From Idiomarina rhizosphaerae (GTDB taxonomy: Bacteria > Pseudomonadota > Gammaproteobacteria > Enterobacterales > Alteromonadaceae): DNA of 64,000 nucleotides. Shown here piece by piece: positions 33,859 to 51,928 of this stretch. A program made the translations under genes and the position numbers. The first letter of the stretch is position 1, and each line of letters starts with the position of its first letter. The DNA is taken from assembly GCF_024159085.1 (NCBI RefSeq), contig NZ_JAMZDE010000006.1, forward strand, positions 310,001 through 374,000, given 5' to 3'. The notes under the pieces were generated by a model. The model was not told where the DNA came from, made no database searches, and saw nothing but the letters and a program-made list of their open reading frames with translations.

Positions 33859-33895
33859 TACCCCATTCTTGATATGTTACCAGCACCCCATTCTT
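33845..33895. other. Left attachment junction of the integrative element
   Basis: Host phoH sequence GAGGTTACCGCGGTTA ends at about 33860, and element sequence begins with ACCCCATTCTT at 33860-33870. The same 11 bp recurs at 33885-33895 (start-to-start 25 bp). The first copy is the inverted counterpart of AGAATTGGGT at the right end (9 of 10 positions). The 4 bp GTTA at 33857-33860 is shared with the right junction and marks the crossover zone. Confidence 0.7.
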
Positions 33896-33945
33896 TACTC
33901 ATCGTTATTTTCATGTCACCATGCAGTATAGCCTGAGGGAATAGC

Positions 33946-35427: not shown

Positions 35428-38182
35428 TAGAAGCTTAAAGCTTGTAAAGCAGTTTGAGACCCTTTCAAAGCCCCTTGGTCAAAATGTACTAAGAATTTTA
35501 GAGGAGTCCTGCAAACCCTCAGATAAAAGACGCTGCGCGGGACATGACGTAACCGAAGAAAGATTGAAAGATCTTCTTAAGTACATAGAGCAAGCTACTA
35601 GCTCATTTAACAGCATTCATTTTCTACGGTTTGTCGAAACAGGATTCGATTTACTTAAGGATAAAATTGAATGGGCTAGAGTTGAAAAAGAGCTCTACGA
35701 AGTTGAAGCAGTTCAAGTATATACACGCCGTAAGGGCTCAATCCTTGCCTCGTTAATACATTTAGCTAAAACATATTTTGATGACCCGTCCCTGAGTTCT
35801 CCCTCCCGAGTTCGCTCATCAACATCAGACCTCTCGATAGATATATCGAAACTATACATATATTCCGCCGAGACGGTCGTAGATTGTAGTGATTTGTTTC
35901 TTAACGTATTGAAAAAACCTAATGGCTACAATAAATATAAATCAGGAGTGCACTGGATTTCACAAGCTTTGGTCAACGCTAAAGGCGATGAAGCTTTAAA
36001 AAGAGCCTTTGAGAAAAAGAAGACTGTTGTGGACATTATCGATGATGACACTACATTTGAAATGCTCAAATCAAAGATCCCCTCAGATAATCACAGCAGA
36101 ATTATTAAGTTTCGCAGTGCTCACAACCCCCAATTACACGGGCTTGAGTCAAAATCAGCTAAAAAGTCCTCTCATGTGTTAAAGGCAGGTAATATCAAAC
36201 GTGGAGCTGTTTGGATATATGAACTGTCGCCCGTTTGGTTCATACAATGCCAAGAATATGTGAACGAAGTACACAAAACACGAGGCAAAACGGCGGCCTT
36301 GAGTGCCATAACCCGTTTAACGAAGTTAGGTAGCGCGATTTATGATCACAAAAATAAATTACCTGACTTGAAAGACTTCAAAAGCGAAGGTGTTTTAGCG
36401 TTTTATAAAAATGGTCATTCTCTAGCAAAAAGCGTCTACCAAATCAAAGAAAAAAGAGTAGCTGACACGCTAGGAGAGCTTATAGCCGTACATAACTACG
36501 TTTACGGGAGTGATTGGAAAATAACTAGCCTATTAAACTTAGTCGTAAAATTTGACAACGAATCGAGTGACGACTCTGAAAATCATATAGTGCTAGACCC
36601 ATTGCTTGATAAATTTCCACATCTTGCCCAATCAATTTTCGATTTCGCACAGTATGAACTAAACCGTATTGATGGGGATAAGAACTCAAGGAACACTGTT
36701 TTCAGCCAAGTTTCAATATTAAAAAACATTTTTAAAAATCATTTAGGCACACTCCGCAAGGCAGAAGTTAAACCTCTACAAGAGCATGGCGTAGAAGGTT
36801 TAGCGATGAATGATTGTCGCCTAATAAAGAAGATCAGGTTTATTATTAGAGATAAATATCAGACTGGTGAGTTTACGCTACAAACTGCGCGTTTTTCACA
36901 GTCAGTACTAAGTTTGTTTTGCGACCATTTCAACCTTCCAAAGGTAAAGTCCTACAGTATTTCCAAAACTAAGAGAAAAGCTAACGAAGACAAAAACAAA
37001 GCTTCCGATTACTATTCGTTAAGAGATGTTGCTTCTCTTGCCTATTCAATAGAAGTAGGGTTACTAGATAACAGCCTATCGAGCAAAGATGAGCTCTTCC
37101 TCAGACTTGGTAGAGTTTTACTAAAGACTGGCTGGAACCTAGATCCAGTGTTGATGCTAGAGATTGACGACTTGTTGAAATTAGATGCACCAATAATTGG
37201 CAAAACTACGAATTTTGTTAGATTGTTCAAGAAGAGAGCTGGTTATAAAACTCAATTTTATGAATTCAATATCGATGAAAAGGGAATTGAAAAAGAAGGG
37301 CTAGTTTTCGGAAAAGAGGTGACTAATGCTCTATCTGACCTTGAATATATCAGAGACAAAATCTCCGCTCGAATCCGTCCATCACTCAAAGAGAATAGTA
37401 AGCTAAAATATCGTTTATCGCTTTACCGGGCCTCAAATGGACGCATTTATAGTCCATCATTTAACAACTTTAACTCGCAAATTAATCAGATTTTACGCAA
37501 GTACGAATGTTCTATATCGTTCAATGTCCAAAGAATTCGTAAAGGCGGTCTCAATTACGTATATAAGAGCTACGCAAAAAAGTTCAAGAAGTACTACGAA
37601 GCTGGTCAGCATTCTCTGAGTGTTTTTCTTGATGTTTATCTTCGAGATGATGGGCTAGAGTCTGAGGAAACTATTTCTTCTGCCACATCTATCATGGCTG
37701 ACTACTTTACCGGTCGGCCTCTAGCAGAAGAGATCATCATCGTTACCGACATTCCTCCTGAGAGTAAACAAACACCTAGCGGACGGTGCGTTTCCACAGG
37801 AAATGATGAAGAAGCTGAAGCGTTCATGAAACTACGCCGCAGATTAAATCGAGAATCGGGCAGTGACAACTCTCAGTGTGGTGACTTCAACGCATGCCTA
37901 TTTTGTCGCCACTATCGGCTTGTTGCGGATGCAGAGCACGTTTGGCGTCTATTGTCTTACCAGAGCTACGTGGTCGGTGAAATGGAAAGAGGAATTAGTG
38001 ATTATGAGAGCTCTACTGATCAATCAGAGTATATCAATCTGTTGAATAAGCGGGTTGAAAAGATACTAGCCGATGTTGAAGAAATAAATAGCGCGGCAGT
38101 AAGAGATGGAGAGTATGAATTTAAGACCAAGGGTTGTCACAAGGATTGGGCCTTTTTCGCTAGTTTTGGGAGTGAGTCGTGA
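35417..38182 (+). CDS. Large recombinase-fold protein with altered active site (Tfp-like)
   Basis: About 921 residues from the ATG at 35417, which has GGGG upstream; the frame extends 11 codons further up. The C-terminal third looks like a tyrosine recombinase domain but is incomplete. The GLRxxE region reads LLKTGWNLDPVLML with no Arg, and HxxR is replaced by QRIR. QHSLSVFLDVY keeps a His and a Tyr nine residues apart. A Cys cluster follows (GRCVSTG, then QCGDFNACLFCRHY), possibly zinc-binding. It lies between two intact recombinase genes and overlaps the next start by 4 bp. It fits the tyrosine-recombinase-fold protein of SE elements. I infer a structural or DNA-binding role in the recombination complex. 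Confidence 0.8.
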   Translation: MIPDRSLKLVKQFETLSKPLGQNVLRILEESCKPSDKRRCAGHDVTEERLKDLLKYIEQATSSFNSIHFLRFVETGFDLLKDKIEWARVEKELYEVEAVQVYTRRKGSILASLIHLAKTYFDDPSLSSPSRVRSSTSDLSIDISKLYIYSAETVVDCSDLFLNVLKKPNGYNKYKSGVHWISQALVNAKGDEALKRAFEKKKTVVDIIDDDTTFEMLKSKIPSDNHSRIIKFRSAHNPQLHGLESKSAKKSSHVLKAGNIKRGAVWIYELSPVWFIQCQEYVNEVHKTRGKTAALSAITRLTKLGSAIYDHKNKLPDLKDFKSEGVLAFYKNGHSLAKSVYQIKEKRVADTLGELIAVHNYVYGSDWKITSLLNLVVKFDNESSDDSENHIVLDPLLDKFPHLAQSIFDFAQYELNRIDGDKNSRNTVFSQVSILKNIFKNHLGTLRKAEVKPLQEHGVEGLAMNDCRLIKKIRFIIRDKYQTGEFTLQTARFSQSVLSLFCDHFNLPKVKSYSISKTKRKANEDKNKASDYYSLRDVASLAYSIEVGLLDNSLSSKDELFLRLGRVLLKTGWNLDPVLMLEIDDLLKLDAPIIGKTTNFVRLFKKRAGYKTQFYEFNIDEKGIEKEGLVFGKEVTNALSDLEYIRDKISARIRPSLKENSKLKYRLSLYRASNGRIYSPSFNNFNSQINQILRKYECSISFNVQRIRKGGLNYVYKSYAKKFKKYYEAGQHSLSVFLDVYLRDDGLESEETISSATSIMADYFTGRPLAEEIIIVTDIPPESKQTPSGRCVSTGNDEEAEAFMKLRRRLNRESGSDNSQCGDFNACLFCRHYRLVADAEHVWRLLSYQSYVVGEMERGISDYESSTDQSEYINLLNKRVEKILADVEEINSAAVRDGEYEFKTKGCHKDWAFFASFGSES

Positions 38183-40251
38183 AGATTTTTGACCTGATAG
38201 AACACATATCTGTAGCTGACGAAACTGGCCTTTTGAGAATAAAGCCACTTAACGAAATTGATTACAAAAAAATTGCTTCGACAAACATCTACGAATCCGA
38301 AAGCGTCCACCAAAACAGTCATAAGAAAACCAAATTTAACGATGACGTATGGCGGATATCGGGCAATAAGTCTATGAACTTTTCTGATTTACAAGGCGCA
38401 CTGAAATATGAAGTAAAAGCTGCCTTTTTAATCGCGAACTACTGTGGTGTTTTTGAGGGTGGGAGAGGTATAAAATTTCAATCCGCAAAAATACAAACTT
38501 CACACTTAATAAAATTCGCGAAAACATTGCAGAAAGCAGGAGTTAATTCACTCCTTATGTTCGACTCACTTAGCGGGTTGATAAAGAGAAACTATATTAT
38601 TAAATTCATAGAAATCAATTTTATCGCTCGTGGAACTTACACTTTCGAAAGTTTTCAACGTCGATTCTTTGAAGAAAAGCTGAACTATGGCTTATTTTCA
38701 AATGATACGGTTTCAATTTTCCAGGAAGAGTTTTTCAGACATAACCTATCATCTGAAGCTCAAGATTCGGTGCTATCCCATCCAGTTGTTCCATCTGGAG
38801 TATTGCAAAGAGCAATTCAAGAGTGTGACAAAAAGATATCAGGCGCGAAAAACCTTATTTCTGATTGGGAACTTGCAAATAAGGGTTTTACAAAAGCAAT
38901 AAGACAGATGAATGGAGGCATAGGTAAACACAATACTGTATCAAGTATTACGAAAGGCCTTACTTCGCAAACCACCGACCCACTCAGGATTGGATTTAAA
39001 GCACTGGATAACCTTAAGTTATCCGTACTAATGTACCTACTTACATTCACAGGTATGCGGAAGGAAGAAGCTCTCTCATGCACCATCGGTTGTGCTGAAT
39101 ATAAAGACAGTAAATATTATATTGAAGCTACTTTGAGCAAGACTGATGATACAAAGATCAAAATGAAATGGGTGACAAATAAGGATACCTACGACGCAAT
39201 TAAGTTACTTGAGCGTTATGTAATCGGCATGCACGACAGAGCAAGAGCTATCTTGAACAACCCTAACCTTAGTATTACGTCAAAATTAAAACATCAGCTA
39301 TCCCATGGTTTAGTTAAAAAGCATATATTCGGTGTAGCTGATACCCTTAAAACCGTTAGGTTTACAAACGCTGCGTTAGGGATCAATTCTGACTATGATA
39401 GTAGCGTGTTTGGAAATAAAGACTCGAAGTTCTCTCTACAACTATACAAGTACCAACTGACTGAAAAAGATATCGATCAACTAGAATCGCTAGGTTGCAA
39501 TTACAAAGCGGTTAGAGGACGCTCAAAAGGAGAAAGTTATGTTGTGGGAGATACTTTTAGAATCACACCGCATATGCTCCGCCACACTTTTGCGTGGTTC
39601 ATTATAGCCAATAGGCTTGGTCAACTGGACGATATAAAACATCAGTTTAAGCATTTAGCAAGCTCAATGACAATGGTTTATGCGTTCAGGGGGTATGACA
39701 GCACTGATGAAATGATCGACTTGTTCGAAGATTTTGAGGAGCTCTTGGTTGACAATATAGCCTACGAAATAGCATCACAAGCAACTAACGGCACGCTGAA
39801 AGGAGAAGGAGGGAAACGCCTAAACGACGGTGCCAGAAACCTTGTCTTCAATGTTACTGCTTCTAATGGGTCTCAAACGGAAAGAACTATCAAGCAAATA
39901 CACTTTAGTAGCTTAGAAGCGTACAAGGCATTTTTAGTCCAGAACTTGAAAAATATCCGGGGGCTTCCTCATGGATATTGTACTGGTGGTTCTGAATGTA
40001 AATTAAAAAATGTCGGCATTCCAAGTGGTTGTGTTTATTGCCCTAATTACATTGTTTCCGAAAAGCAACGGATACATTGGCAAGCTATGAAAAATTTTGC
40101 CGATGACAAACTACTCATTTACAAGCAGTTATCTGATGAACAACAAACAGAATACTCTTTGATGGCCGAGGCGTGGAGAGATACCAGCAACGCTGCCTTA
40201 ATAATTCTAAAAAATTCAGCGCCTGATAACGCTGAGGAGAGTTCAGCATGA
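38179..40251 (+). CDS. Second tyrosine recombinase (IntB-like) with Cys-rich tail
   Basis: A 690-residue protein starting at GTG, which overlaps the previous stop by 4 bp. The catalytic domain is intact: Arg in TFTGMRKEEAL, Lys in LSKTDDTKIKMKW, HMLRHTFAW, then His and Tyr nine residues apart in FKHLASSMTMVY. The C-terminal tail has a Cys pattern C-x5-C-x10-C-x2-C (GYCTGGSEC, then GCVYCPNY), similar in style to the preceding protein and probably zinc-binding. It is larger than typical integrases because of a long N-terminal part. Position matches IntB of SE elements, possibly GmtZ. It likely acts with IntA on the two ends. Confidence 0.85.
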   Translation: MKIFDLIEHISVADETGLLRIKPLNEIDYKKIASTNIYESESVHQNSHKKTKFNDDVWRISGNKSMNFSDLQGALKYEVKAAFLIANYCGVFEGGRGIKFQSAKIQTSHLIKFAKTLQKAGVNSLLMFDSLSGLIKRNYIIKFIEINFIARGTYTFESFQRRFFEEKLNYGLFSNDTVSIFQEEFFRHNLSSEAQDSVLSHPVVPSGVLQRAIQECDKKISGAKNLISDWELANKGFTKAIRQMNGGIGKHNTVSSITKGLTSQTTDPLRIGFKALDNLKLSVLMYLLTFTGMRKEEALSCTIGCAEYKDSKYYIEATLSKTDDTKIKMKWVTNKDTYDAIKLLERYVIGMHDRARAILNNPNLSITSKLKHQLSHGLVKKHIFGVADTLKTVRFTNAALGINSDYDSSVFGNKDSKFSLQLYKYQLTEKDIDQLESLGCNYKAVRGRSKGESYVVGDTFRITPHMLRHTFAWFIIANRLGQLDDIKHQFKHLASSMTMVYAFRGYDSTDEMIDLFEDFEELLVDNIAYEIASQATNGTLKGEGGKRLNDGARNLVFNVTASNGSQTERTIKQIHFSSLEAYKAFLVQNLKNIRGLPHGYCTGGSECKLKNVGIPSGCVYCPNYIVSEKQRIHWQAMKNFADDKLLIYKQLSDEQQTEYSLMAEAWRDTSNAALIILKNSAPDNAEESSA

Positions 40252-40712
40252 GCCCCAAAGACGAAAAATCTGGTCAAGAACTTATGATGGACGCGTTAAA
40301 CGAGTTGATCGCAACTCCCAACGCAAAAATTAATAGAAATATAGTCGCTAAGCGGGCTCGTTTGAGTCATACCTTACTTAGAAAGAAGTCATATAGCGAT
40401 GTTGAAAAGAGAATAATCAAGGCTGAGAAATTAAGAGCCATTGAAATGGAAGATAGAAGCAAAGACCAGCGGATAAAGCAGCTCGAAAATATGTTAGTGG
40501 CTGCTAATATCAAGTTAAAGAAGTTGACCGAACGCTCACAAGCACCATCATCAAAAACCATAAAAAAAATAGAAGGTGACTTAGTAGCTCAGCTTTTAGA
40601 GATGTATAGGTATAACGATCTATTGAGGGCTAGGTTGGCGGAAAAGCATGGCGAAAGTATAGACAAAGAGACAGGCGAGGTTATACATATCAACCGGATC
40701 AAACGACGTTAG
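40248..40712 (+). CDS. Small coiled-coil recombination accessory protein (Srap-like)
   Basis: A 154-residue, Lys/Glu-rich protein, overlapping the IntB-like stop by 4 bp (ATGA). An N-terminal helical part (MMDALNELIATPNAKINRNIVAKRARLSHTLLRKKSYS) resembles the helix-turn-helix start of DUF6262-type proteins encoded next to integrases. A coiled coil follows at about 65-100 (RSKDQRIKQLENMLVAANIKLKKL). It is the fourth gene of the module and corresponds in place and size to srap of SE elements or GmtX. I infer a DNA-binding or directionality factor. Confidence 0.65.
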   Translation: MSPKDEKSGQELMMDALNELIATPNAKINRNIVAKRARLSHTLLRKKSYSDVEKRIIKAEKLRAIEMEDRSKDQRIKQLENMLVAANIKLKKLTERSQAPSSKTIKKIEGDLVAQLLEMYRYNDLLRARLAEKHGESIDKETGEVIHINRIKRR

Positions 40713-41090
40713 GTCAGGGGAAACTGGACTTCCCATACTTTGCTAGACACTTGTGAAAGTTACAATTTCTCGCAAACCTATCGAGCGTCTATTTATGATG
40801 TAATCTTCCCCTAGGGCGCACGTGCTACACTTCATCACTGGATAAGAGAGTGTATTAGGTTTACATGCCCCTAGAAGTGACAGCGCATGACACTGTATAC
40901 TGTTAGACTACTGGTCATTTACGCGACTTCTCCCCACCCGATCTTGTATCATACTCCTTTATGAGGGGGCGGAGGTTGAGTTCTGCGATGTCTTTGTAAT
41001 ATCAATTCTTAAGAGCAAGACTGAGAAGGGTTTTTAGACCCCTTTTGCTATAATGCTCGCTCAGCTACGTCAGCATATCGGTACTGTCCA
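40713..41090. other. Gene-free stretch between the recombinase module and R-M operon
   Basis: This 378-bp gap contains no convincing gene. Near its end a weak hairpin (AAGGG and CCCCTT followed by TTTT, 41027-41046) could end transcription of the recombinase module, and a TATAAT box follows at 41049. Confidence 0.5.
41049..41054 (+). promoter_or_regulatory. Candidate -10 box of the R-M operon
   Basis: A perfect TATAAT lies 36 bp before the first possible ATG of the methyltransferase gene. No good -35 hexamer stands 17 bp upstream, so the promoter may be weak or need an activator. Confidence 0.4.
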
Positions 41091-42524
41091 ATGCTTAGTA
41101 AGGCTGAAAATCGAAAAATCATAACGATGAGTATAAATCCGAAAATGGCTAGAAAAAGTAGAATTCTTGATTTGTGCGAACGAGCATCGAGCCTGAACCA
41201 GAAGCAGCTGTTAACTCTAGAGTCTCAATTTGATGTTAATGTTGTAGGGGGCTTGGAGAACCTTGTAAATTACTCTCCAAAAAGTGAGCGACCTATCCAT
41301 AGATGGTTCCGTTATCGTGAGGGATATTCTATCGAATTAGTCAAGAGCATGCTGAGTGAACTACCCAAGAACTCAGTCATTTTAGACCCTTTCTGTGGTG
41401 CAGGAACGACTCTTTTAGCTGCAAAAGAGCTGGGTATGAAAGCTATCGGACTAGACGTTAATCCAATGTCGGTGTTGATAGCAAAGGTTAAAACTCGAAA
41501 TTATAACAGCTCGCAAATAGATGAAATTAGGAAGCTTACCGACTCTGTATCGTCCCTTACCCTAGATAGCGCTTCTGACGAAGCCCCTGAACTTAAAATT
41601 ATTGATAAAGTTTATCACCCAGAGATTCTAAAATCCCTATTGATAATAAGGTGCTTCATTAAAGCAATTCAAAATGAAGTATCAAGAGACTTCTTCAAAG
41701 TGGCTTGGCTATCTATTATTGAAGGTACATCAAATGTCTATAAAGAAGGGAACGGGATTAAATATAGAAATAAAAAGCGTTCTAAGTCAGGTTCATACAC
41801 AATACCAATTGAAATATGGCAAGAGGAATATTTCCCGCAAGATAAGTTTCGATTTGTTTTAGAAACTTTCTTAAAGAAGTTGGCGGAGATGCTAGATGAC
41901 ATAGCTATACCAGCACCAGACAGCGGTATTACGCCAATAGTAAAATGTGCAAAGGCTGAAGAGATAAGCAACCATGTGAACAGTGAAACAGTGGACTACG
42001 TTATTTTTTCCCCACCTTATTGTAACTGCTTTAACTATTTTAAAATTTTCAAGATAGAGCTCTGGATGGGAGAATTCATTGATTCATATGAAGACATGCG
42101 AAAACTCAATAGTCAGGCTCTGCGTTCCCACGTAGAAACCACACTGAAAAGAGATTCAGATAAGCGTCTCCCAGCTGTAGAAGCGATAGTGAACCTTGTA
42201 GATAGGGATAAGGTTTGGGACAAGAGAATACCCGATGCTATAACTGGGTATTTTGTTGATATGAACTCCGTGTTGGAACAGTGTAAAATCGTTTTGAAAG
42301 ATAAGGGTTTTTGTTCTGCGGTTGTAGGTAACTCAGTTTATGGAGGAATTGTAATCCCTACCGATCTAATTTTAGCTAGCCTTGCAAGGGATTTAGGTTA
42401 TGAGAACCAGCATATATCTATAGCTCGATTATTACCTACGAGTGCACAACAGCAGAAATCATTAGGTGATAAACGGCGGTATATGAGAGAAAGCATAATT
42501 ACCCTGAGAAAGGGGGAATTATGA
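41091..42524 (+). CDS. DNA amino-methyltransferase 1 of the R-M operon
   Basis: A 477-residue DNA methyltransferase. The SAM-binding motif I is LDPFCGAGTT with the Asp at about 99, preceded by a motif X-like HRWFRYREGYS. The catalytic motif IV is SPPY at 307-310, which favours N4-cytosine methylation, though N6-adenine is possible. Motif I precedes IV with about 200 residues between them, a place for target recognition. No restriction domain is present. The start is uncertain: ATG 41091 lacks a ribosome site, and MSINPKM at 41127 is an alternative. It overlaps the second methyltransferase gene by 4 bp. Confidence 0.85.
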   Translation: MLSKAENRKIITMSINPKMARKSRILDLCERASSLNQKQLLTLESQFDVNVVGGLENLVNYSPKSERPIHRWFRYREGYSIELVKSMLSELPKNSVILDPFCGAGTTLLAAKELGMKAIGLDVNPMSVLIAKVKTRNYNSSQIDEIRKLTDSVSSLTLDSASDEAPELKIIDKVYHPEILKSLLIIRCFIKAIQNEVSRDFFKVAWLSIIEGTSNVYKEGNGIKYRNKKRSKSGSYTIPIEIWQEEYFPQDKFRFVLETFLKKLAEMLDDIAIPAPDSGITPIVKCAKAEEISNHVNSETVDYVIFSPPYCNCFNYFKIFKIELWMGEFIDSYEDMRKLNSQALRSHVETTLKRDSDKRLPAVEAIVNLVDRDKVWDKRIPDAITGYFVDMNSVLEQCKIVLKDKGFCSAVVGNSVYGGIVIPTDLILASLARDLGYENQHISIARLLPTSAQQQKSLGDKRRYMRESIITLRKGEL

Positions 42525-43861
42525 TTGATGATCCAATTAACAACCAAAAAAAAATGACAGTTGAAGAGCCTGAATTAATCTACGTAGACGAGATCCCAAA
42601 AAATGTAACTCACGGAAAGAATAAGGTATTTGTTATAAAAAATTCTGGGCTAACTCGGGCTACTCATAAGTTTCACCGATATCCGGGTAAGTTCATTCCA
42701 CATGTACCGAGGTGGGCTTTAGATAAGTACTTAAGTCCCAATGATAGCTCAAAGTTAGTTCTTGATCCATTTATGGGATCGGGCACCACCCTCGTCGAAA
42801 GCAGTATATTCGGTGTATCATCTTATGGCTTAGATATAGATCCAATTGCACGTCTCATATCTAAAGTCAAAACTGCTTCTTACGACTTAAGGGCCCTACA
42901 GAGCCATGTGTCCGAACTGAAAGCAATATTAATGTCGAACCAAGTGGCTGAACTTTTTACACCAACGCTCCCGACTCTATCACATTGGTTTAATGAAGCT
43001 GCGGTGAAGCAACTTGGAGCTATTCGCGCAACAATTGATAGGTTCAAATCTGAAAAAACCACATACGATTTTTTTCTCGTATGTTTTATCGCCATAATAA
43101 GAAGAGCATCGAATGCCGATAATCAAACTCAGAAAACCTATGTCTCGCATACACATCCGAAAATTCCAGAACCTGCCCTACCTTTATTTCTAAAAACAAT
43201 CGACGATTACTACAAGCGTGTAGTTGAATTTTCGGAACTGAGCTCCACAGATGTGCAAGTTAACATTCTAGAAGAATGCGAAGCTAGAAACGTCGGAGAC
43301 TTTTGGAGAGAGCACGGCCTACCAAAGATAGATTTGGCAATCACGTCGCCACCTTACGTAAAAAGTGTTGATTACGTTTACAATCAAATGTCCGAATACT
43401 TTTGGATTGGAGATCTTTTTGAACTGGAAAGTCAGGCGAAACAAAACTTACAAAAGAAATTGTATGTTGGCACTGATAAAGTTTTCGCTTCGGAGTATCG
43501 AGAACAGAATTTTCTGGGGATCGCGACAATAGATAAAGTCTTAGAGCAACTGTATGAATCTAATCAGAAAAGTGGATACATTGTATATAAATATTTCTCT
43601 GAAATGCTTCAACATTTTCACCAGATGCGGTCGGTACTAAAGGAAAACTCTAGATACTTGGTTGTAGTTGGCGATAGTGTAGTTAGTGGCATTCCAATTG
43701 AGACACACGAGCTATTAGTCGATTGCGCTGAATCTGTTGGATTTTGTCGAGAAAATACGTTTGGATATGAGATAAGGAATCGACATATGCGGTTCCCTCG
43801 TCAAGGAAACGGCGGTATTGTAAAGTATGACTGGCTCTTAGATTTAAGGAACTGTAAGTAA
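42521..43861 (+). CDS. DNA amino-methyltransferase 2 of the R-M operon
   Basis: A 446-residue paralogue of the preceding enzyme with the same layout. A motif X-like KFHRYPGKFIPHV lies near 50, motif I LDPFMGSGTT has its Asp near 85, and motif IV TSPPY covers about 275-279, again of N4-cytosine type. Two methyltransferases in one operon usually protect the two strands of an asymmetric recognition site; this is inferred here. It overlaps the upstream gene by 4 bp and the downstream McrB-like gene by 1 bp (TAATG), so all are translated together. Confidence 0.85.
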   Translation: MIDDPINNQKKMTVEEPELIYVDEIPKNVTHGKNKVFVIKNSGLTRATHKFHRYPGKFIPHVPRWALDKYLSPNDSSKLVLDPFMGSGTTLVESSIFGVSSYGLDIDPIARLISKVKTASYDLRALQSHVSELKAILMSNQVAELFTPTLPTLSHWFNEAAVKQLGAIRATIDRFKSEKTTYDFFLVCFIAIIRRASNADNQTQKTYVSHTHPKIPEPALPLFLKTIDDYYKRVVEFSELSSTDVQVNILEECEARNVGDFWREHGLPKIDLAITSPPYVKSVDYVYNQMSEYFWIGDLFELESQAKQNLQKKLYVGTDKVFASEYREQNFLGIATIDKVLEQLYESNQKSGYIVYKYFSEMLQHFHQMRSVLKENSRYLVVVGDSVVSGIPIETHELLVDCAESVGFCRENTFGYEIRNRHMRFPRQGNGGIVKYDWLLDLRNCK

Positions 43862-45585
43862 TGTCTGAAGATTTTTACTGGCGAGTACCAAGAGATAGCT
43901 TGATCACAAACTCTGCATTGCAGATGTTCCAGTTACTATATCAAAGAAAAGGCTCAATATTCGATGAGGTTAAGGCTGATATAGATAAAGATTATTCAAC
44001 ACTAACTGGAAAAGAGTATAAAAAGCATGGTGGGCTAATCCAAACATGGGTAAAAGTATTTCAGGAGGCCGGCTGGGTCGCATTAATCCCGAATAAAGAC
44101 GGAAAAGAGCTGATTGAGATAACCCCAGCCGGGGAGCAAGGGTATCAAATACTTATAAAATTACCTGATTTCCACAAGGCTGCTCCCTACTTTGTAATTG
44201 AACTACTTAGTCGAGCACAGTTAAATAACCCTGCGAAACCCAAGTTGACCAAAGACACTGAATATGAAGAAAAACTCTCTTCAAGTGATATATTTCCATA
44301 TTGGACTCTTTTTAAAATTATTATTGAACTGGAAGATTATATTACTGCTGACGAGCTGAAACGCTTTGTATTCAAACTTCACAGTTCTTCTGAAATTGAT
44401 AATGCAATAGAAACAATTCGTGCTTATAGGATAGACAAGCATAAAGGCCTCAGTAAAAGTGAGCTTGATACTAAATATAGCGCTGAGCTAGAAGGAGCTA
44501 AATCTGAGCCCAAGTACTATATGGGACGACTCGGGACACAAGTTGGTAAATATCCTGCTGTTCTTGAAAAAGAAGGGACTCAGAAATGGGTCCTAAATAA
44601 ATATTATAAGCCTACTATTCTTGAGATTCTTAAAGAAGAAAAGTCATTTAAGTTATTTGAATCAATTATTGATTGGACACAACATATTGGCAAACCAGTT
44701 GATTTAGATGGCGAGTCGCAAAACAACTTGGATAGAGAGGATGATCCTGAACCGGAATTGATACCTCCTGAAATAGACAGTAGTGACAAAATTTTCCAAC
44801 AATTCAAAGAGCTAATTGATTCAGGTAGTAGAAATTTTATACTATCTGGACCTCCCGGTACTGGCAAAAGTTGGTATGCTCGACAGGTAGCTCTATTACT
44901 ATCCTCTGGAAAGACTAAGTATATAGAAAGCACTCAGTTTCATCCAAACTTTGGCTATGACGAATTTGTAGAAGGCTATGTTCCATCGTTTGATGAAAAT
45001 CAAAAGAGCAACGGATTTGAAATTAGACCTAAAGTATTCTTAAAAACGTGTAGTCGCGCTAAGCGCGAGCCTGATAAACTTTTCATAATAGTCATAGACG
45101 AATTTACTAGGGGTGACCCAAGCAGGATATTAGGAGAGGTATTAACTTACATAGAACCTGATTATCGGGATAAATACTTTCGTCTTGCATATTCGCAAAG
45201 AAAAGAGCAGATTCCTAAAAACCTGATCATTATTGCAACAATGAATCCATACGATAAATCTGTGTCGGATTTGGATGATGCATTAGAAAGAAGATTTGAA
45301 AGCATCCTTATGAATCCTGATAGAGAAGTATTGAAGTCATTGTTGGAAAGGAACGGAATGGAGCCTGCACTTCAAGGACGTGTAATTAATTTCTATAACA
45401 AGGCTAATAAGTCTTCACCTCATGGTTTGGGACATGCGTTATTTTCGAAGGTGTCCAACCAAAGCGACTTAAGACGTCTTTGGAAACACAAGTTAGAGCG
45501 TATTTTTGAAAAGATGTTTCGCTTTGAAATGGAGAAGTACAATGAGCTCAATCAACTCTACAATGAAACAGTTTTGAATGAGTAG
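43861..45585 (+). CDS. McrB-like AAA+ NTPase restriction subunit
   Basis: A 574-residue protein. The N-terminal about 110 residues look like a winged-helix domain (WRVPRDSLITNSALQMFQLL, then LIQTWVKVFQEAGWV) that may recognise DNA. The AAA+ domain has Walker A GPPGTGKS at 330-337, Walker B IVIDEF with D413-E414, and the McrB-type segment ATMNPYDKSVSDLDDALERRF from about 460. Typical McrB has MNTAD, here MNPYD, so GTP versus ATP use is uncertain. By analogy with McrBC and LlaJI it translocates DNA and drives the nuclease encoded next, with which it overlaps by 8 bp. Confidence 0.85.
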   Translation: MSEDFYWRVPRDSLITNSALQMFQLLYQRKGSIFDEVKADIDKDYSTLTGKEYKKHGGLIQTWVKVFQEAGWVALIPNKDGKELIEITPAGEQGYQILIKLPDFHKAAPYFVIELLSRAQLNNPAKPKLTKDTEYEEKLSSSDIFPYWTLFKIIIELEDYITADELKRFVFKLHSSSEIDNAIETIRAYRIDKHKGLSKSELDTKYSAELEGAKSEPKYYMGRLGTQVGKYPAVLEKEGTQKWVLNKYYKPTILEILKEEKSFKLFESIIDWTQHIGKPVDLDGESQNNLDREDDPEPELIPPEIDSSDKIFQQFKELIDSGSRNFILSGPPGTGKSWYARQVALLLSSGKTKYIESTQFHPNFGYDEFVEGYVPSFDENQKSNGFEIRPKVFLKTCSRAKREPDKLFIIVIDEFTRGDPSRILGEVLTYIEPDYRDKYFRLAYSQRKEQIPKNLIIIATMNPYDKSVSDLDDALERRFESILMNPDREVLKSLLERNGMEPALQGRVINFYNKANKSSPHGLGHALFSKVSNQSDLRRLWKHKLERIFEKMFRFEMEKYNELNQLYNETVLNE

Positions 45586-46897
45586 TGATTTGGAATTGCA
45601 AGACGTTTCTGTAAAAAAACCAACTGAATACATTTTTGATATTCACGAAAATGAATATATCGACATCCCTAATGATTTTATTATCGGGGCTTCGGGTGAT
45701 ATAGAAATAAATAAGGAGGTTTTCGAACATAGCTTAGTAGAAGTAAGCTACCGAAAGGGTAAAATATCTGTTCGGTCGGGAAACTATATTGGTGAAATAA
45801 GACTTAACAAAAATGTAATTTTAAATATTAAGCCTAAAGCTCCAATTGCAAATCTCATGCATATAATTTCATGTGCGAATAGTGAAATAAAAATATTAGA
45901 ATATTATAAACGGTTTTACGGAATTTCGAGTATAGAATCTCAAAATTTAAAACACTTTCTTGTATCTTGCTTCATAGTTGAGCTTAGACATCTTTTATCT
46001 GAAGGTATTTTCAAGGTTTATATTGAAAAAGAAGATATCGTCAATTCACCTAAGGGTAAAATATCGTTCTCTAAAACTATTTCTCAGTGCGTTGCTAAAA
46101 ACCATCCTAATAAGTTAGCAGTTATTGACTACAATTTCACTTCAGACCATGAGTTGAATCAGTTAATAAAATATACAATTTGGTTCTGTTTATATCAGCT
46201 ACCAAATTTCGATGGTGAAAAATCAAAGGCATTGAAAAAGAATTTATATGAGATTTACGAACAATTCGATAATGTGACATTGGATCTAAGCAGAAAATTC
46301 ATTGAAAAAGTTAATAAAATAATTTTAGATAACTCAATTCCTACGCTTAGAAGTTATTATTACAATATAATCAACTTGTCAAAGGAAATTATAAATGCTT
46401 CGATATTGGATCTTGAAAAAAACACTAATAATATCTCTTTATCTGCATTCGTAATTAATGTAGCTTACGTTTTCGAATCTTATTTACTTAACCTATTCAA
46501 ATCTAATCAATATGGATTTAATGTCTTTGATGGAAACAGTGACGGTAAGAAAAAATTATTTAATGACAATAATACTTATGAAGCTAAGCCTGACTATATT
46601 TACGAAGATAAAGATAATAACATACGGCTCGTTGCGGATGCAAAGTATAAAAAGTCAGCAAAGGAAACCGACCGCTATCAATTGATTTCTCATGCGCTTT
46701 CTTACGGAGCTAATATCGCAGTGTGTATTTTGCCAAGCTTTATTACTCGGGAAGAATCATTAGTGTACATTGGCGAGATTGGTGGCGGTCATAAAATTAA
46801 TTTCTATAATTATTATCTAGATTTACAAAATGAAAACATTGAACTAGTTGAGCAGCAGCTTATTGATTGCATCAGTCGCTTAGTAAATGAAGCTTGA
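45578..46897 (+). CDS. McrC-like PD-(D/E)xK nuclease subunit
   Basis: A 439-residue protein with the McrC-family order. The N-terminal half is strand-rich (IKPKAPIANLMHIIS) and expected to contact the McrB ring. The C-terminal nuclease domain has a PD-(D/E)xK-like signature, P338-D339 followed by D354-A-K356 (KPDYIYEDKDNNIRLVADAKYKKS region). It is the last gene of the four-gene operon and starts within the McrB-like gene. It should cut unprotected or wrongly modified DNA. It is very AT-rich compared with the backbone, consistent with transfer. Confidence 0.85.
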   Translation: MSSDLELQDVSVKKPTEYIFDIHENEYIDIPNDFIIGASGDIEINKEVFEHSLVEVSYRKGKISVRSGNYIGEIRLNKNVILNIKPKAPIANLMHIISCANSEIKILEYYKRFYGISSIESQNLKHFLVSCFIVELRHLLSEGIFKVYIEKEDIVNSPKGKISFSKTISQCVAKNHPNKLAVIDYNFTSDHELNQLIKYTIWFCLYQLPNFDGEKSKALKKNLYEIYEQFDNVTLDLSRKFIEKVNKIILDNSIPTLRSYYYNIINLSKEIINASILDLEKNTNNISLSAFVINVAYVFESYLLNLFKSNQYGFNVFDGNSDGKKKLFNDNNTYEAKPDYIYEDKDNNIRLVADAKYKKSAKETDRYQLISHALSYGANIAVCILPSFITREESLVYIGEIGGGHKINFYNYYLDLQNENIELVEQQLIDCISRLVNEA

Positions 46898-47022
46898 TTA
46901 TATTCAAGCTGCTTAGATTCCCACGTTAGTTCGGAAACTAATAAAAATAGGTATGCTTTCTAGAGAATGCTAATACTCGAAGCTTGCAAGGTTTTGAGAG
47001 ACCTGAGCAACAACACTCTCGT

Positions 47023-47144
47023 CACCTGTAAGTTATTCGATTAATCTGTACCAAGACAGCCTCACAGCTGTGAGCTATTCGACTAATCTGTACCAAAACA
47101 GACCCGCACCTGTGAGTTATCTGATTAATATTTACCATAACGCC
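47023..47144 (+). repeat. Three tandem 42-bp repeats
   Basis: Copies begin at 47023, 47065 and 47107, exactly 42 bp apart. The consensus begins CACCTGTGAGTTATTCGA and continues TTAATCTGTACCAAAACAG. The third copy is more diverged and shorter. There are no unique spacers, so this is not a CRISPR array. They lie after the R-M operon and before the helicase remnant, with no function apparent; iteron-like protein-binding sites are one possibility. Confidence 0.8.
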
Positions 47145-47198
47145 TTGAAATAAAAAGATTCAACATGCTTCTCTATCATCAATTGTAGTGCTCAAGAA

Positions 47199-47519
47199 GG
47201 CGTTAACGAATATGGGAATAAACGTATCATTAAGGTCGATTGGCAACTATTCGAGTATATCCATCTTGCCTATTGCTTAACGCTTCACAAGTTGCAGGGG
47301 TTACAAACGAAAAACGTAATCATACTTGTTGAGCGAGGCTTTTTACTTGACCGAAGTTGGCTATATACGGCTGTATCCCGAGCCGAAGATAAACTGCATA
47401 TTATTGGCAAAAAGTCAGATTATCGATATGGTGTCAAGAAGAAAGGGGCTTACGATACCCAAAAAACTGCCTTAGCTGAAATGCTGAAGTACTCATACAC
47501 AAGCGATACACAAAGATGA
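47199..47519 (+). pseudogene. 3' remnant of a RecD/UvrD-like helicase gene
   Basis: The frame reads GVNEYGNKRIIKVDW, LAYCLTLHKLQGLQTKNVII and LLDRSWLYTAVSRAEDKLHIIG before the stop at 47519. These match helicase motifs V and VI at the end of RecD2/UvrD-type enzymes (THKSQG and YTAxSRA). The frame is open only from about 47154, with no start signal and no upstream helicase motifs, so this is the last about 100 codons of a lost gene. Confidence 0.75.
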
Positions 47520-47566
47520 CTTTCGTTGCAGAGCTAATAAACTTGTAACTTTACATCAGACACAAA

Positions 47567-47589
47567 AAAGCCGACACAATGTCGGCTTT
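47567..47589. terminator. Bidirectional rho-independent terminator
   Basis: AAAGCCGACA and TGTCGGCTTT form a perfect 10-bp stem with a 3-nt loop, flanked by A and T runs. It serves the small gene on the minus strand and may also end the helicase remnant on the plus strand. Confidence 0.8.
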
Positions 47590-47608
47590 ATACGGAGCTG
47601 CTTAAATA

Positions 47609-47737
47609 TTATTTAATTGAGAGACGAGTCTTTGTGCGGATTCTGCCTTCTTGCTTAGCTTTAGCGATAGCGGTGTGAAGCATGTGCAAACCGGCGACTT
47701 TCCTCTCAGAAACTTTACGAGTTTGGTTTGAATGCAT
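47609..47737 (-). CDS. Very small basic protein (42 residues)
   Basis: An ATG at 47737 has GGAG at a good distance. The reading frame gives a 42-residue, Lys/Arg-rich peptide (MHSNQTRKVSERKVAGLHML, then AIAKAKQEGRIRTKTRLSIK) ending 20 bp before a strong terminator. The combination of ribosome site, basic composition and terminator supports a real gene. It overlaps the end of a possible upstream frame at 47715-47939. No family is recognised; nucleic-acid binding is a guess from charge. Confidence 0.5.
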   Translation of the reverse strand: MHSNQTRKVSERKVAGLHMLHTAIAKAKQEGRIRTKTRLSIK

Positions 47738-47939
47738 AAAAATCTCCAGAATCACTGTCGTGGGGGTTATTTATTAACCGATAGTTCCATCTTAACGCAA
47801 CACCCTTATAGTTGGCCAGTTTCTTATAGAAAGCATTCAACTTAGAGTATTGAGCTTCCGCAACATACACTGAAGGCGTTATCTCACTACACGCATAGTG
47901 CGATTTTAAACCGTCCGTGATAACAGGGTAGAACCCCAC
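47715..47939 (-). CDS. Possible small protein (74 residues)
   Basis: A frame from GTG at 47939, with GGAAG about 6 nt upstream, encodes an aromatic-rich peptide (GFYPVITDGLKSHYACSE, then KLANYKGVALRWNYRLINN). It overlaps the start of the 42-residue gene by 23 bp, so the two could be co-translated. No family is recognised and coding status is uncertain; it could also be the end of a decayed gene. Confidence 0.35.
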   Translation of the reverse strand: MGFYPVITDGLKSHYACSEITPSVYVAEAQYSKLNAFYKKLANYKGVALRWNYRLINNPHDSDSGDFYAFKPNS

Positions 47940-48015
47940 CGAGACTTCCAGTAGCTAATTTCGCTTGTTGGGCCAGCTATGAGCCTAATTTTTGCTAAAT
48001 CGAAACAAGTTATGT

Positions 48016-48044
48016 TTGACATTCATAACCTTTCAGCTTAATTT
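48016..48044 (+). promoter_or_regulatory. Candidate sigma-70 promoter
   Basis: TTGACA at 48016-48021 is followed after 17 bp by TAATTT at 48039-48044. It lies about 120 bp before the ATG of the gene at 48167. Confidence 0.45.
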
Positions 48045-48166
48045 TGAGTGGTACGTAAATCATCCGGGATCAATAACCTACGTACTTAGAACAACTCATC
48101 AACCAATGACAAGTTGCTAGTTCACTCCATGCTGATCGAGATCCTATCAGGGGTGAAGGAGTAATT

Positions 48167-49174
48167 ATGTCTATCTACAACATTTTCTTAAGCCAAAAAG
48201 ACAAGGCTTTTCTGAAGGCTCTGGCCAAAACCATCAAATCAGAGTGTTCCCCTGAGTCAGAACTTACATCTATTCAAAACACTATCGCGTCCAGTTTAGG
48301 CTACAACAGTTGGAACGCCCTGCAAAAATTTAATCAATGCGATGTTCAATTCACCGATCTGGCATCAATCCTGAAAATCGCTATTTCACATACGGTAACA
48401 GAGTTGTTTAATGCTACCGATGTCAATGACGCTAGTAACGAGCTTTATAGCTTGTTTTTCGGCTCCTCGGTATGGACTGAATATGGCGACAATACTCCCG
48501 GTAACACGATTAACATGTGTTTACTACCACTCGACCATCAGGGGCAATACGAACTAGTTGGCTTCACGAGTGAGCTAGATCTTGTTAAGAAGATAGAAAG
48601 CCGTCTCAGTACAAGTCTGGTAATGAATCCCGTTATTAGCATTGACAGAAAACTGATTAGCCGTCGTGAGCGTCCATATGCTGCGCGCCGCCCTATCCTA
48701 AAATACTTTGAATCAGTAGAAGGGATTGTGTTTATAGAGTCCGATACGAAAATCTGCCATTTTGATTATATCTCATCGTCGGAGATTAATATCACTAGTG
48801 ATGATATCAAGCACGCTTTAATGCGTTGTGCTTTTCTTAGTCCATCGTCCTACATATACCAATTTCGAATTGAGAAAGATTTATTTGTAGCTCGGGTCTA
48901 TCGTGAAGAAATTAATAGTAGCAGAAACAGCTTGGCGGGTGCGGTAAAAATTGATAGCGAAAACCGCGATCTTCTAAAATCTCGAACGCACCCTGTAGAG
49001 GGCTATTCATGCGTAGAGGATGCTTTAATCTATGCTGCTTTTGATGACAATTTTCACATGACGCCTAATGAGAACCATAGTTACTTTGATTTTTGCCGAT
49101 ATAGCATTGCAAAGATTTTCGAACTTCAGTCCTTTGCGTCCGATCTCGTCAAGGTGGCTGATACCTTTAGATAG
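48167..49174 (+). CDS. Unknown protein with glyoxalase-related N-terminal motif
   Basis: A 335-residue cytosolic protein. The segment ELTSIQNTIASSLGYNSWNALQKF near 32-55 resembles the N-terminal domain seen in glyoxalase-related plasmid proteins, where a LGYxxWxxL motif recurs. The rest has no recognised domain. Residues about 170-190 are Arg-rich (SRRERPYAARRP). GAAGGAG precedes the ATG and a good sigma-70 promoter lies upstream. It stands alone on the plus strand as element cargo. Function is unknown. Confidence 0.65.
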   Translation: MSIYNIFLSQKDKAFLKALAKTIKSECSPESELTSIQNTIASSLGYNSWNALQKFNQCDVQFTDLASILKIAISHTVTELFNATDVNDASNELYSLFFGSSVWTEYGDNTPGNTINMCLLPLDHQGQYELVGFTSELDLVKKIESRLSTSLVMNPVISIDRKLISRRERPYAARRPILKYFESVEGIVFIESDTKICHFDYISSSEINITSDDIKHALMRCAFLSPSSYIYQFRIEKDLFVARVYREEINSSRNSLAGAVKIDSENRDLLKSRTHPVEGYSCVEDALIYAAFDDNFHMTPNENHSYFDFCRYSIAKIFELQSFASDLVKVADTFR

Positions 49175-49627
49175 AAAGTCGCTGACCTAATTCGAGAATA
49201 CTCAGGTTTCATTTAAAAACTCACCACTTCTGGAAACGTCATCAGAATAGGTATGTTATGACAAAACGACCTAAGTATATTGGCTACTGGGTTAATGGCA
49301 ATTTGATGGGCGTTATATGCCGGATGGAGAGAAATGAACATTTTTATTACTATAGTGGCTGATCGAACCTATTCATGAGTTTCGTAGGCTCAAGGGCGAA
49401 GTTCTCTTCACTTGCCGTTAACTTCCAGTCTAAGTAAACTCTAATTAATTTGAGCTGCAAACGTCATGTAAATATTTGCCCCAAACTTCACTTGTACTCG
49501 GGGGACGCCGTCAGAATGCGATTAAAGAGAGTACGAGCAGCACTTTTAGACTCACCATAGTTTCTCGTCATTAATCATGTGTGTGCTAGCACGAGCATAT
49601 ACTGGAATCTTTATAACTACGTTACGT
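49175..49627. other. Gene-poor stretch
   Basis: This 453-bp gap has only a possible 34-residue frame at 49258-49362 (MTKRPKYIGYWVNGNLMGVI) with a weak ribosome site. Otherwise nothing is recognised. Confidence 0.4.
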
Positions 49628-49843
49628 CTACTCTTCTACTGACAGTTGAATAACGCCACTGCCTGCCATAAGCAGAAGCCTTTCCTTTTCGGTTAATTGG
49701 GCTTCAGCTGCTTGACCAAGGTATGCCCAGCGCTCAATCACTTCTGAGGCTGATTTAGGCTGACGCTCAAATACTGCCTGCGCTTCATTGATGAGAAACT
49801 GGTCAAGCTCGACTTTACCTATGCCTTGTTGCTCTTCGTCCAT
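49628..49843 (-). CDS. ParD-like antitoxin-type protein
   Basis: A 71-residue protein whose centre, KVELDQFLINEAQAVFERQ followed by SASEVIERWAYLGQAAE, fits the ParD-like family (ribbon-helix-helix, with the IExWAxLG motif). GAGG precedes the ATG. Such proteins repress their own operon and neutralise a toxin. No toxin gene is visible on either side, so it is an orphan or serves as a regulator. Confidence 0.6.
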   Translation of the reverse strand: MDEEQQGIGKVELDQFLINEAQAVFERQPKSASEVIERWAYLGQAAEAQLTEKERLLLMAGSGVIQLSVEE

Positions 49844-50175
49844 TTGCTACCTCGTGAATTAGGAGTGCTATTTCGCGCAACTTGACTGTTGGGCGGAGCG
49901 ACTACTCGTTGGGTTCAACTAAACATAGCTTCCCTATCTTTATTAAGCAATAGCAATCTAAACATAAAGGATTGATTAATAACAAAAAATTTAAATTTGT
50001 CAGTGTTTTTTAATTCGTTTTTTTATTCTGTATCTGGAGTAACTGACTGTATAAAAACACGATATTGGGTATTAATTGTATGAAAATATAATGGTATGAA
50101 AAGTCGAAAATTCAATAGTAAACAATCTCACTTTTTTCCAAGGTATCCGTCATTAAATGATGCAAATAATTGCTA
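49844..50175. other. AT-rich gap, nothing recognised
   Basis: A 332-bp AT-rich stretch with A and T runs between the ParD-like gene and the next minus-strand gene. It probably holds the promoter of the ParD-like gene; I see no gene. Confidence 0.4.
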
Positions 50176-51405: not shown

Positions 51406-51928
51406 AAGCCTTCTTCCGATGCCCAAATAATAGCCGGAAATTGTCTATGATTCTCTGTTCAATCCATAGAAGGGCTGGAAAGTGTCTAGGTTAGTGATGG
51501 CGGTCCACTATTCATGTTTCATCGAACGCACTTGCAACAATCTGTGTCCGACGCGTAACATTTGGGCGTGGCATATAGACACATTATTTACTCAAAGCCA
51601 AATAATGGTGTGAGGTTCACGCATTTGGACATAAGCTATTGATAAAGATGAGTAAAGTTGACAATCCAACTGGTATTTTTTTATCTTTTGCTGAAATCAT
51701 TTGAGAGTAAAGTCCTTTTGACTAAGAGGCGTCTACTAGGGCTAAGCAGCAATTTCACCGACGAAACCCATTATCAAGCAGTTATCAAAATCATACTTAA
51801 CAGGAAGTGAATGCCTTTTAAGGCTATCAACGTGAAGCCGCAGAATGCGGCTTCACGAACGATGCACTTTTCTTGTCCAAATATTAGGATAAACAGTGAT
51901 CAACCTGCCTTTCGCATTGATTAAAAAT
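51406..51928. other. Gene-free stretch with a perfect hairpin
   Basis: A 523-bp gap between two minus-strand genes. Apart from the hairpin at 51831-51857 and the likely promoter of the helix-turn-helix gene, no gene is recognised. Confidence 0.45.
51831..51857. terminator. Perfect 12-bp hairpin after the element-borne phoH
   Basis: CGTGAAGCCGCA and TGCGGCTTCACG form a perfect 12-bp stem with a GAA loop, about 70 bp past the stop of the element's phoH gene on the minus strand. No T-tract follows, so it may act as a terminator or as an mRNA 3' stabiliser. Confidence 0.5.

What the first reader, a model, noticed from the sequence alone, without database searches (positions are those of the whole stretch)
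41091..46897. Hybrid R-M operon: two SPPY-type methyltransferases with McrB-like and McrC-like proteins
McrBC normally works alone against methylated DNA. Here it is translationally coupled to two amino-methyltransferases. LlaJI is the known precedent for two methyltransferases with McrBC-like restriction, but its enzymes are, as I recall, cytosine-C5 type. Two N4-cytosine-like enzymes with this effector would be a different flavour, probably with an asymmetric site.
Basis: partly seen in the sequence, partly recalled or inferred. Interest (0 to 1): 0.65.

Follow-up and report, generated by a model that had tools for sequence, protein, structure and literature searches.

The report
Restriction operon with interchangeable cutting machinery
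A mobile bacterial defence operon carries two DNA-marking enzymes and a DNA-cutting machine whose DNA-reading part resembles that of ordinary restriction enzymes, and in relatives the same kind of markers and reader is joined to quite different cutters, which suggests that such defences are built from swappable parts.

Summary
Four overlapping intact genes (41091-46897, +) encode two amino-methyltransferases with SPPY motifs, an McrB-like AAA+ protein and an McrC-like nuclease. McrBC-methyltransferase association is already in print, and LlaJI is the m5C precedent. New here: the first ~290 residues of the McrB-like protein are not a known methyl-cytosine reader. They are homologous to the N-terminus of HNH endonucleases, and their predicted structure matches the recognition domains of type IIS enzymes BspD6I (Z 17.4) and BpuJI (Z 14.4). 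The operon is cargo of a 19.7-kb island absent from four relatives. Site, m4C versus m6A, nucleotide and activity are untested.

The parts
41091..42524 (+). M1: amino-methyltransferase, SAM motif DPFCGAGTT before motif IV FSPPY, 477 aa
   Evidence: PF01555 5.5e-12; SPPY invariant in 21 of 21 rows; AF2 pLDDT 87.2, generic Rossmann methyltransferase fold
42521..43861 (+). M2: second amino-methyltransferase, motif IV TSPPY, 446 aa; ATGA overlap with M1
   Evidence: PF01555 1.4e-10; TSPPY invariant in 19 of 19 rows; distant paralogue of M1, 25% identity
43861..44730 (+). Reader: N-terminal ~290 aa of the McrB-like protein, a type IIS recognition-domain fold (BspD6I/BpuJI type)
   Evidence: Homologous to the N-terminus of an HNH endonuclease and to a stand-alone protein behind a homologous methyltransferase pair; AF2 and fold search; partial PF09491 RE_AlwI match, 24.1 bits against a cut-off of 23.1
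44760..45585 (+). McrB-like AAA+ motor: Walker A GPPGTGKS, signature MNPYD (NxxD type)
   Evidence: AAA_5 5.3e-18; E. coli McrB in the PDB 1.2e-29; motifs
45578..46897 (+). McrC-like subunit with PD...DAK nuclease motif, 439 aa
   Evidence: PF10117 1.6e-30; motif PD-(14)-DAK
33861..53518 (.). Island that carries the operon
   Evidence: Window 33860 joins 53519 with a 4-base overlap in four same-genus genomes
33946..40712 (+). Overlapping recombinase module: 493-aa and 690-aa tyrosine recombinases, 932-aa and 154-aa proteins of unknown family
   Evidence: Phage_integrase 4.1e-7 and 3.8e-7; no Pfam hit for the other two; ORFs

Best explanation
This is a restriction-modification system for one short asymmetric site. 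M1 and M2 each methylate one strand of the site, so host DNA is protected. The N-terminal reader of the McrB-like protein binds the same site when it is unmodified. The McrB-like ring then hydrolyses nucleotide, moves along DNA and drives the McrC-like nuclease to cut foreign DNA away from the site. Shown by computation: gene order, families, reader homology and predicted fold, different effectors behind homologous cores, and the island with empty sites in relatives. Inferred: recognition of unmodified DNA, one strand per methyltransferase, translocation, phage defence. Unknown: site, m4C or m6A, GTP or ATP.
For: The L020 reader (HNH_2) is 59% identical to readers of split McrBC systems, and the L011 reader (NOV_C) 50%. 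On the M1+M2 tree L023 (split McrBC) is sister to three HNH systems at 100, and L020 (HNH_2, with contig-cut L022) is sister to split McrBC systems at 95. Reader and methyltransferase distances correlate: r 0.906 and 0.909 for 21 rows, 0.873 and 0.874 for 18 after near-duplicates were dropped, 0 of 2000 permutations as high each time. BstNBI/BspD6I read GAGTC, and type IIT enzymes are in general accompanied by two methyltransferases, one per strand (passages of PMC4081073).
Against: No activity, site or methylome was measured. The fold match is to a predicted model, at 12-15% sequence identity. Profile-profile comparison with the AlwI family is weak (probability 29, E 5.9e-4, only two AlwI sequences). 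Of 27 pairs, 5 have no reader: L016 stops at the contig end, L015 has 1.3 kb and L033 (broken M2 reading frame) about 1.6 kb left, but L008 and L012 look like lone pairs. The McrC-like partner in the split loci is weakly supported: in L006, L018 and L023 its Pfam matches are all below the curated cut-offs, and in L019 no profile finds it, only the PD...DAK pattern. The window and L009 readers are 36% identical to each other but only 20-26% to their next nearest, so their sites may differ. Nearly all these loci were found through M1, not at random. The correlation of distances shows joint inheritance, not a shared site. M1-like genes without partner were also seen (L040, L041 in the same genus). 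The signature MNPYD differs from E. coli McrB, so nucleotide use is open; R1.LlaJI showed no GTPase activity in vitro (passage of PMC1459862).
Confidence: 0.77

Rival explanations
1. A type IV system: the McrB-like protein reads methylated DNA, and the two methyltransferases are separate or act as a lure or regulator.
For: N-terminal-domain/winged-helix/McrB-like-NTPase fusions with McrC partners have been mentioned beside 6mA-dependent enzymes, their own activity untested (passages of PMC11037411). E. coli McrBC is modification-dependent (passages).
Against: The operon would attack DNA marked by its own enzymes. A homologous reader is fused to HNH behind a homologous pair. LlaJI, the tested analogue, restricts unmethylated DNA (passages of PMC1459862).
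Confidence: 0.08
2. A LlaJI-family system whose methyltransferases have changed: an ordinary member of a known kind.
For: Same gene count and order: two methyltransferases, McrB-like, McrC-like, asymmetric site (passages of PMC1459862 and PMC12707154). L082 has an m5C pair with the same kind of reader and motor.
Against: Methyltransferases are PF01555-type, not PF00145. Homologous pairs and readers also go with non-McrBC nucleases.
Confidence: 0.12
3. Four genes sitting together by chance in a defence island, without joint function.
For: The operon is cargo of a mobile island, and such islands collect genes.
Against: Start-stop overlaps at all three junctions; the same order in L009 and a split form in 14 loci from several phyla.
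Confidence: 0.03

Closest known systems
LlaJI (Lactococcus plasmid pNP40)
   Same: Two methyltransferases followed by McrB-like and McrC-like subunits; asymmetric site; unmethylated DNA is the target (passages of PMC1459862, abstract included)
   Different: LlaJI has m5C enzymes and a B3 reader (passage of PMC12707154); here PF01555 enzymes and a BspD6I/BpuJI-type reader
Type IIS enzymes BspD6I/BstNBI, BpuJI, AlwI
   Same: Fold of the recognition domain for BspD6I and BpuJI; AlwI has two methyltransferases in one chain, type IIT systems two enzymes, for an asymmetric site (passages of PMC4081073)
   Different: Their nuclease is PD-(D/E)XK in or with the recognition protein (BspD6I from the passages, the others recalled); here it is McrBC. 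The two AlwI-family loci examined (L079, L080) have other methyltransferases by inspection and own profiles
Methyltransferase-associated McrB clades of Bell et al. 2024
   Same: NxxD GTPases beside predicted DNA methyltransferases (PMC11090510, passages and section 6)
   Different: That paper defers these clades to a forthcoming publication; the passages seen name no type IIS-like reader and no effector exchange
E. coli McrBC
   Same: McrB motor core and McrC nuclease families
   Different: Alone, reads 5mC through its own N-terminal domain; the window protein has no hit to such a domain
Plasmid systems L002, L003, L004
   Same: McrB core 37-39% identical to the window's, with McrC

Membership tests
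McrBC restriction machinery | McrB AAA+ core with Walker A and N-xx-D signature | tested here: met
   AAA_5 5.3e-18, PRK11331 3.8e-28; GPPGTGKS and MNPYD
McrBC restriction machinery | McrC partner with PD-(D/E)XK site | tested here: met
   PF10117 1.6e-30; PD...DAK; no PDB match by sequence up to 0.1
McrBC restriction machinery | N-terminal reader of modified cytosine (DUF3578/ADAM type) | tested here: not met
   No such Pfam hit up to E 0.1; the region as a whole matches a type IIS recognition fold instead
McrBC restriction machinery | GTP-driven translocation and cutting between sites | not testable with these tools
   needs protein
LlaJI | Two m5C methyltransferases | tested here: not met
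   Both are PF01555; no PF00145 hit up to E 0.1
LlaJI | McrB-like plus McrC-like restriction subunits downstream of two methyltransferases | tested here: met
LlaJI | B3 reader domain on the McrB-like subunit | tested here: inconclusive
   No B3 structure was compared directly; the domain as a whole matches N.BspD6I (Z 17.4, 3.9 A, 244 aligned) and is mostly helical in the model
Type IIS/IIT restriction systems (BspD6I, BpuJI, AlwI) | Recognition-domain fold | tested here: met
   Foldseek 2.6e-6; Z 17.4 and 14.4, on a predicted model
Type IIS/IIT restriction systems (BspD6I, BpuJI, AlwI) | PD-(D/E)XK nuclease domain in the recognition protein | tested here: not met
   The C-terminal half is AAA+; RE_AlwI matches only profile positions 48-116 of 441
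Type IIS/IIT restriction systems (BspD6I, BpuJI, AlwI) | Two methyltransferases for an asymmetric site | tested here: inconclusive
   Two genes present; the site is unknown
m4C methyltransferases | N4-cytosine product | not testable with these tools
   SPPY in all aligned rows only suggests it, by a recalled rule; nearest solved folds are RNA and other methyltransferases
Gamma-Mobile-Trio islands | The three named Gmt proteins | not tested
   No sequence of the trio was available; known to me from memory and from one citing passage (PMC12715929)

The most novel reading that the evidence does not exclude
A type IIS-like reader acts as an adaptor in bacterial restriction. One reader family and its methyltransferase pair are coupled in nature to several cutting ends (fused McrBC, split McrBC, HNH of two Pfam kinds, NOV_C), and the same kind of reader plus McrBC is also paired with m5C methyltransferases, so marking enzymes, reader and cutter are exchanged independently. 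It adds to McrBC a reader class that recognises unmodified DNA.
Probability: 0.65. Interest if true: 0.68.

Novelty: new variant of a known kind. Interest (0 to 1): 0.58.

Why it matters
Methyltransferase-associated McrBC was noted in print without a mechanism in the passages seen. A reader shared with HNH enzymes suggests one: sequence-specific recognition of unmodified DNA. Because homologous cores occur with a plain nuclease and with a motor-driven one, natural pairs now exist to ask what a translocating effector adds, for instance against phages with few sites.

Tried and rejected
m5C type for the window pair: no PF00145 hit. PADLOC gave generic methyltransferase and weak REase_II models, PHROGs generic methyltransferases: no specificity. 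PDB by sequence: reader profile gave no credible hit (best E 0.02), McrC none up to 0.1. Structure of M1 to separate m4C from m6A: generic Rossmann methyltransferases, nearest Trm11 Z 15.4, 2.9 A, 179 aligned. AlwI-family loci as possible carriers of the same pair: the two examined have other methyltransferases, judged by inspection and weak scores of my M1 and M2 profiles, no Pfam run. Reader in plasmids beyond L005 and L006: nothing new. Phage records: 4 match M1, 20 match the motor; none opened. Plasmid records: 303 match the McrB-like protein, I opened 3 (H1-H3); 39 match M1, I opened 3 (H41-H43). Effector labels on the methyltransferase tree: 4 changes for 4 classes in 21 labelled tips (3 is the least possible); shuffles mean 5.8, lowest 4 of 1000, the number reaching 4 not printed. 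So effectors cluster and exchanges are few. Promoter scan: 18 sites, 21.4 expected in shuffles, so no evidence. B3 and DpnI-like winged helices are not among the listed fold matches, which excludes nothing. Papers: searches. McrB together with BpuJI occurs in no held paper; the deferred paper of Bell et al. was not found. Of the 6 papers listed for McrBC with AlwI I looked into one (PMC4081073). Passages of PMC10853773 and PMC11779793 were seen and not used.
Full report
WHAT IS THERE. Four intact genes on the + strand overlap head to tail: M1 41091-42524, M2 42521-43861, McrB-like 43861-45585, McrC-like 45578-46897. M1 and M2 match PF01555, with the SAM-binding motif before motif IV and about 200 residues between. 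They are distant paralogues (25% identity). SPPY is invariant in 21 of 21 M1 rows and TSPPY in 19 of 19 M2 rows (rows chosen from the loci found). The third protein is an AAA_5 ATPase in its C-terminal half and matches E. coli McrB in the PDB at 1.2e-29. The fourth is PF10117 with a PD...DAK motif.

THE N-TERMINAL HALF OF THE McrB-LIKE PROTEIN. Pfam gave only a partial RE_AlwI match, profile positions 48-116 of 441 (2.1e-5, 24.1 bits, cut-off 23.1); L009 gives a weaker one below the cut-off (1.2e-3). Direct comparison showed that this half is homologous to the N-terminus of an HNH endonuclease in Pseudanabaena (L005) and to a separate protein in Cryobacterium (L006), each behind a homologous methyltransferase pair. 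An AlphaFold2 model of residues 1-310 on 18 rows has mean pLDDT 78.2 and pTM 0.78. Foldseek's first eight PDB hits are all the BspD6I nicking endonuclease (best 2.6e-6), followed by the BpuJI recognition domain (1.1e-3). VIA-align gives N.BspD6I 2ewf Z 17.4, rmsd 3.9, 244 aligned, and BpuJI 5hnh Z 14.4, rmsd 3.4, 221 aligned; MarR-type rows follow at 9.9 or less. BstNBI/BspD6I reads GAGTC (passage of PMC4081073). That BpuJI is a type IIS enzyme with an asymmetric unmodified site is recalled; the PDB titles say only that its recognition domain was solved with cognate DNA.

CENSUS. One scan of genome contigs with an M1 alignment gave 25 loci, one of viral contigs 6, and plasmid records L002-L007 were opened by hand. 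Profiles of M1, M2, reader, AAA and McrC were run on all ORFs of these 37 loci. In 27 of 37, M1 and M2 are adjacent or fused; the other ten are L002-L004 (fetched through McrB), L007, L025, L026, L028, L030, L032 and L038. Effectors of the 22: 14 split McrBC (reader, AAA and McrC-like as three genes; L006, L010, L013, L014, L017, L018, L019, L023, L027, L029, L034, L035, L036, L037), 5 reader-HNH fusions (L005, L020, L021, L024, L031), 1 reader-NOV_C fusion (L011), 1 reader-AAA fusion with McrC like the window (L009), 1 cut by the contig end (L022). Five have none: L008 (pair fused, next gene on the other strand), L012, L015, L016, L033. L036 is the same DNA as L027, and L034, L035 and L037 are close relatives, so the independent number is smaller. 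The McrC-like proteins of the split loci are divergent: Pfam matches in L006, L018 and L023 are below the curated cut-offs, and in L019 no profile hits. A PD...(D/E)xK pattern is found in 11 of 13 McrC-like proteins examined, not in L006 and L002. Not in the census: a later M2 scan of viral contigs (11 loci), of which L051-L054 and L056 are contigs already counted, L050 starts in M2 and has a reader identical to L035's, and L055 and L057-L060 are M2-like at 26-29% without a reader at 1e-3 and were not studied further. Two M1-like genes in the same genus (L040, L041) have no M2 or reader in the 4 kb held. A reader profile scored 22 of 1097 ORFs below 1e-5 and none of 1097 shuffled ORFs at E up to 10; 17 of the 22 were in the profile.

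EXCHANGE OF PARTS. On the M1+M2 tree the split-McrBC locus L023 is sister to the HNH loci L005, L021 and L024 (support 100), and the HNH_2 locus L020, with contig-cut L022, is sister to L018, L027 and relatives (95). Several deeper nodes are weak (46-49). L020's reader is 59% identical to split-McrBC readers and L011's (NOV_C) 50%. Reader distances follow methyltransferase distances (r 0.906 and 0.909 for 21 rows; 0.873 and 0.874 for 18 after dropping L034, L037, L017; 0 of 2000 permutations as high). This fits joint inheritance of core and reader, with the cutter changing. In the HNH and NOV_C loci no AAA or McrC was found in the flanks held. The motor has its own history: the window's AAA is 39% identical to L009 and 37-39% to single-methyltransferase plasmid systems with another N-terminus (L002-L004), but only 17-19% to the split AAAs. 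So the methyltransferase pair can also be of another chemistry. This rests on one contig of an unnamed draft genome.

MECHANISM. Two methyltransferases are usual for an asymmetric site (passages of PMC4081073). LlaJI, the tested analogue, restricts unmethylated DNA through McrB-like and McrC-like subunits (passages of PMC1459862), and its reader is a B3 domain (passage of PMC12707154). Translocation is inferred from McrBC; R1.LlaJI showed no GTPase activity in vitro, so this step is the least sure.

SURROUNDINGS. GC falls from 45-51% to 36-43% across the region. In four same-genus genomes the sequence left of 33860 joins directly to 53519 (91.8, 91.6, 78 and 77% identity on the left side), so the island is about 19.66 kb. 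It begins with a recombinase module. Its right end lies in the 3' part of a gene (53305-54780, -) that looks like PIN-PhoH by its sequence, and it brings a PIN-PhoH gene of its own, 51929-53305 (PF02562 and PF13638). Versions of the system also lie on IMG/VR contigs (L034-L037), so prophages probably carry it too.

WHAT IS KNOWN. McrBC next to DNA methyltransferases is reported in PMC11090510 (passages and section 6), with details deferred to a later paper that I did not find. Winged-helix-McrB fusions with McrC are mentioned in PMC11037411 (passages). I found no paper naming a BpuJI- or AlwI-type reader on McrB, but of six papers listed I looked into one, and most subscription journals are not held.

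VERDICT. Observation confirmed; interpretation partly right. The operon itself is a new variant of a known kind. The more interesting result is the shared reader and the exchange of cutters and methyltransferases around it.

Noticed in passing
window 33861-53518: 19.66-kb island with a four-gene recombinase module, absent from four same-genus genomes; resembles Gamma-Mobile-Trio or Tn554-like modules from memory only.
   Followed up: partly
window 51929-53305 and 53305-54780: The island ends inside the 3' part of a chromosomal gene that looks like PIN-PhoH and carries a PIN-PhoH gene right beside it (Pfam for the island copy only).
   Followed up: partly
window 47292-47519: Fragment of a RecD-like helicase C-terminus (PF13538 2.2e-7), probably a relic in the island.
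   Followed up: no
L082 1-7975 (G400:C124): LlaJI-like operon: two m5C methyltransferases, stand-alone type IIS-like reader, short McrB core, McrC.
   Followed up: yes
L002, L003, L004: Plasmid operons of one site-specific methyltransferase, an McrB-like protein with another N-terminus, and McrC; a second combination of motor and reader.
   Followed up: partly
L008:8836-11583: M1 and M2 fused into one 916-aa protein in a Woesearchaeota contig, with no effector next to it.
   Followed up: no
L025, L026, L028, L032: M1-like enzymes behind a 621-623-aa protein that also scores as a methyltransferase near its N-terminus; a different pairing in archaea and Gastranaerophilales.
   Followed up: no
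L034, L035, L036, L037: Split-McrBC version on IMG/VR contigs of 41-52 kb, probably prophages; L036 lies within DNA of Paraburkholderia eburnea L027.
   Followed up: partly
L006, L018 and other split loci: The stand-alone reader protein (381-404 aa) has 100 or more further C-terminal residues of unknown fold, perhaps the dock for the McrB-like ring (no Pfam hit for L006 and L018).
   Followed up: no
L040, L041 (same genus): M1-like methyltransferases with other neighbours, one beside a 354-aa unknown protein.
   Followed up: no
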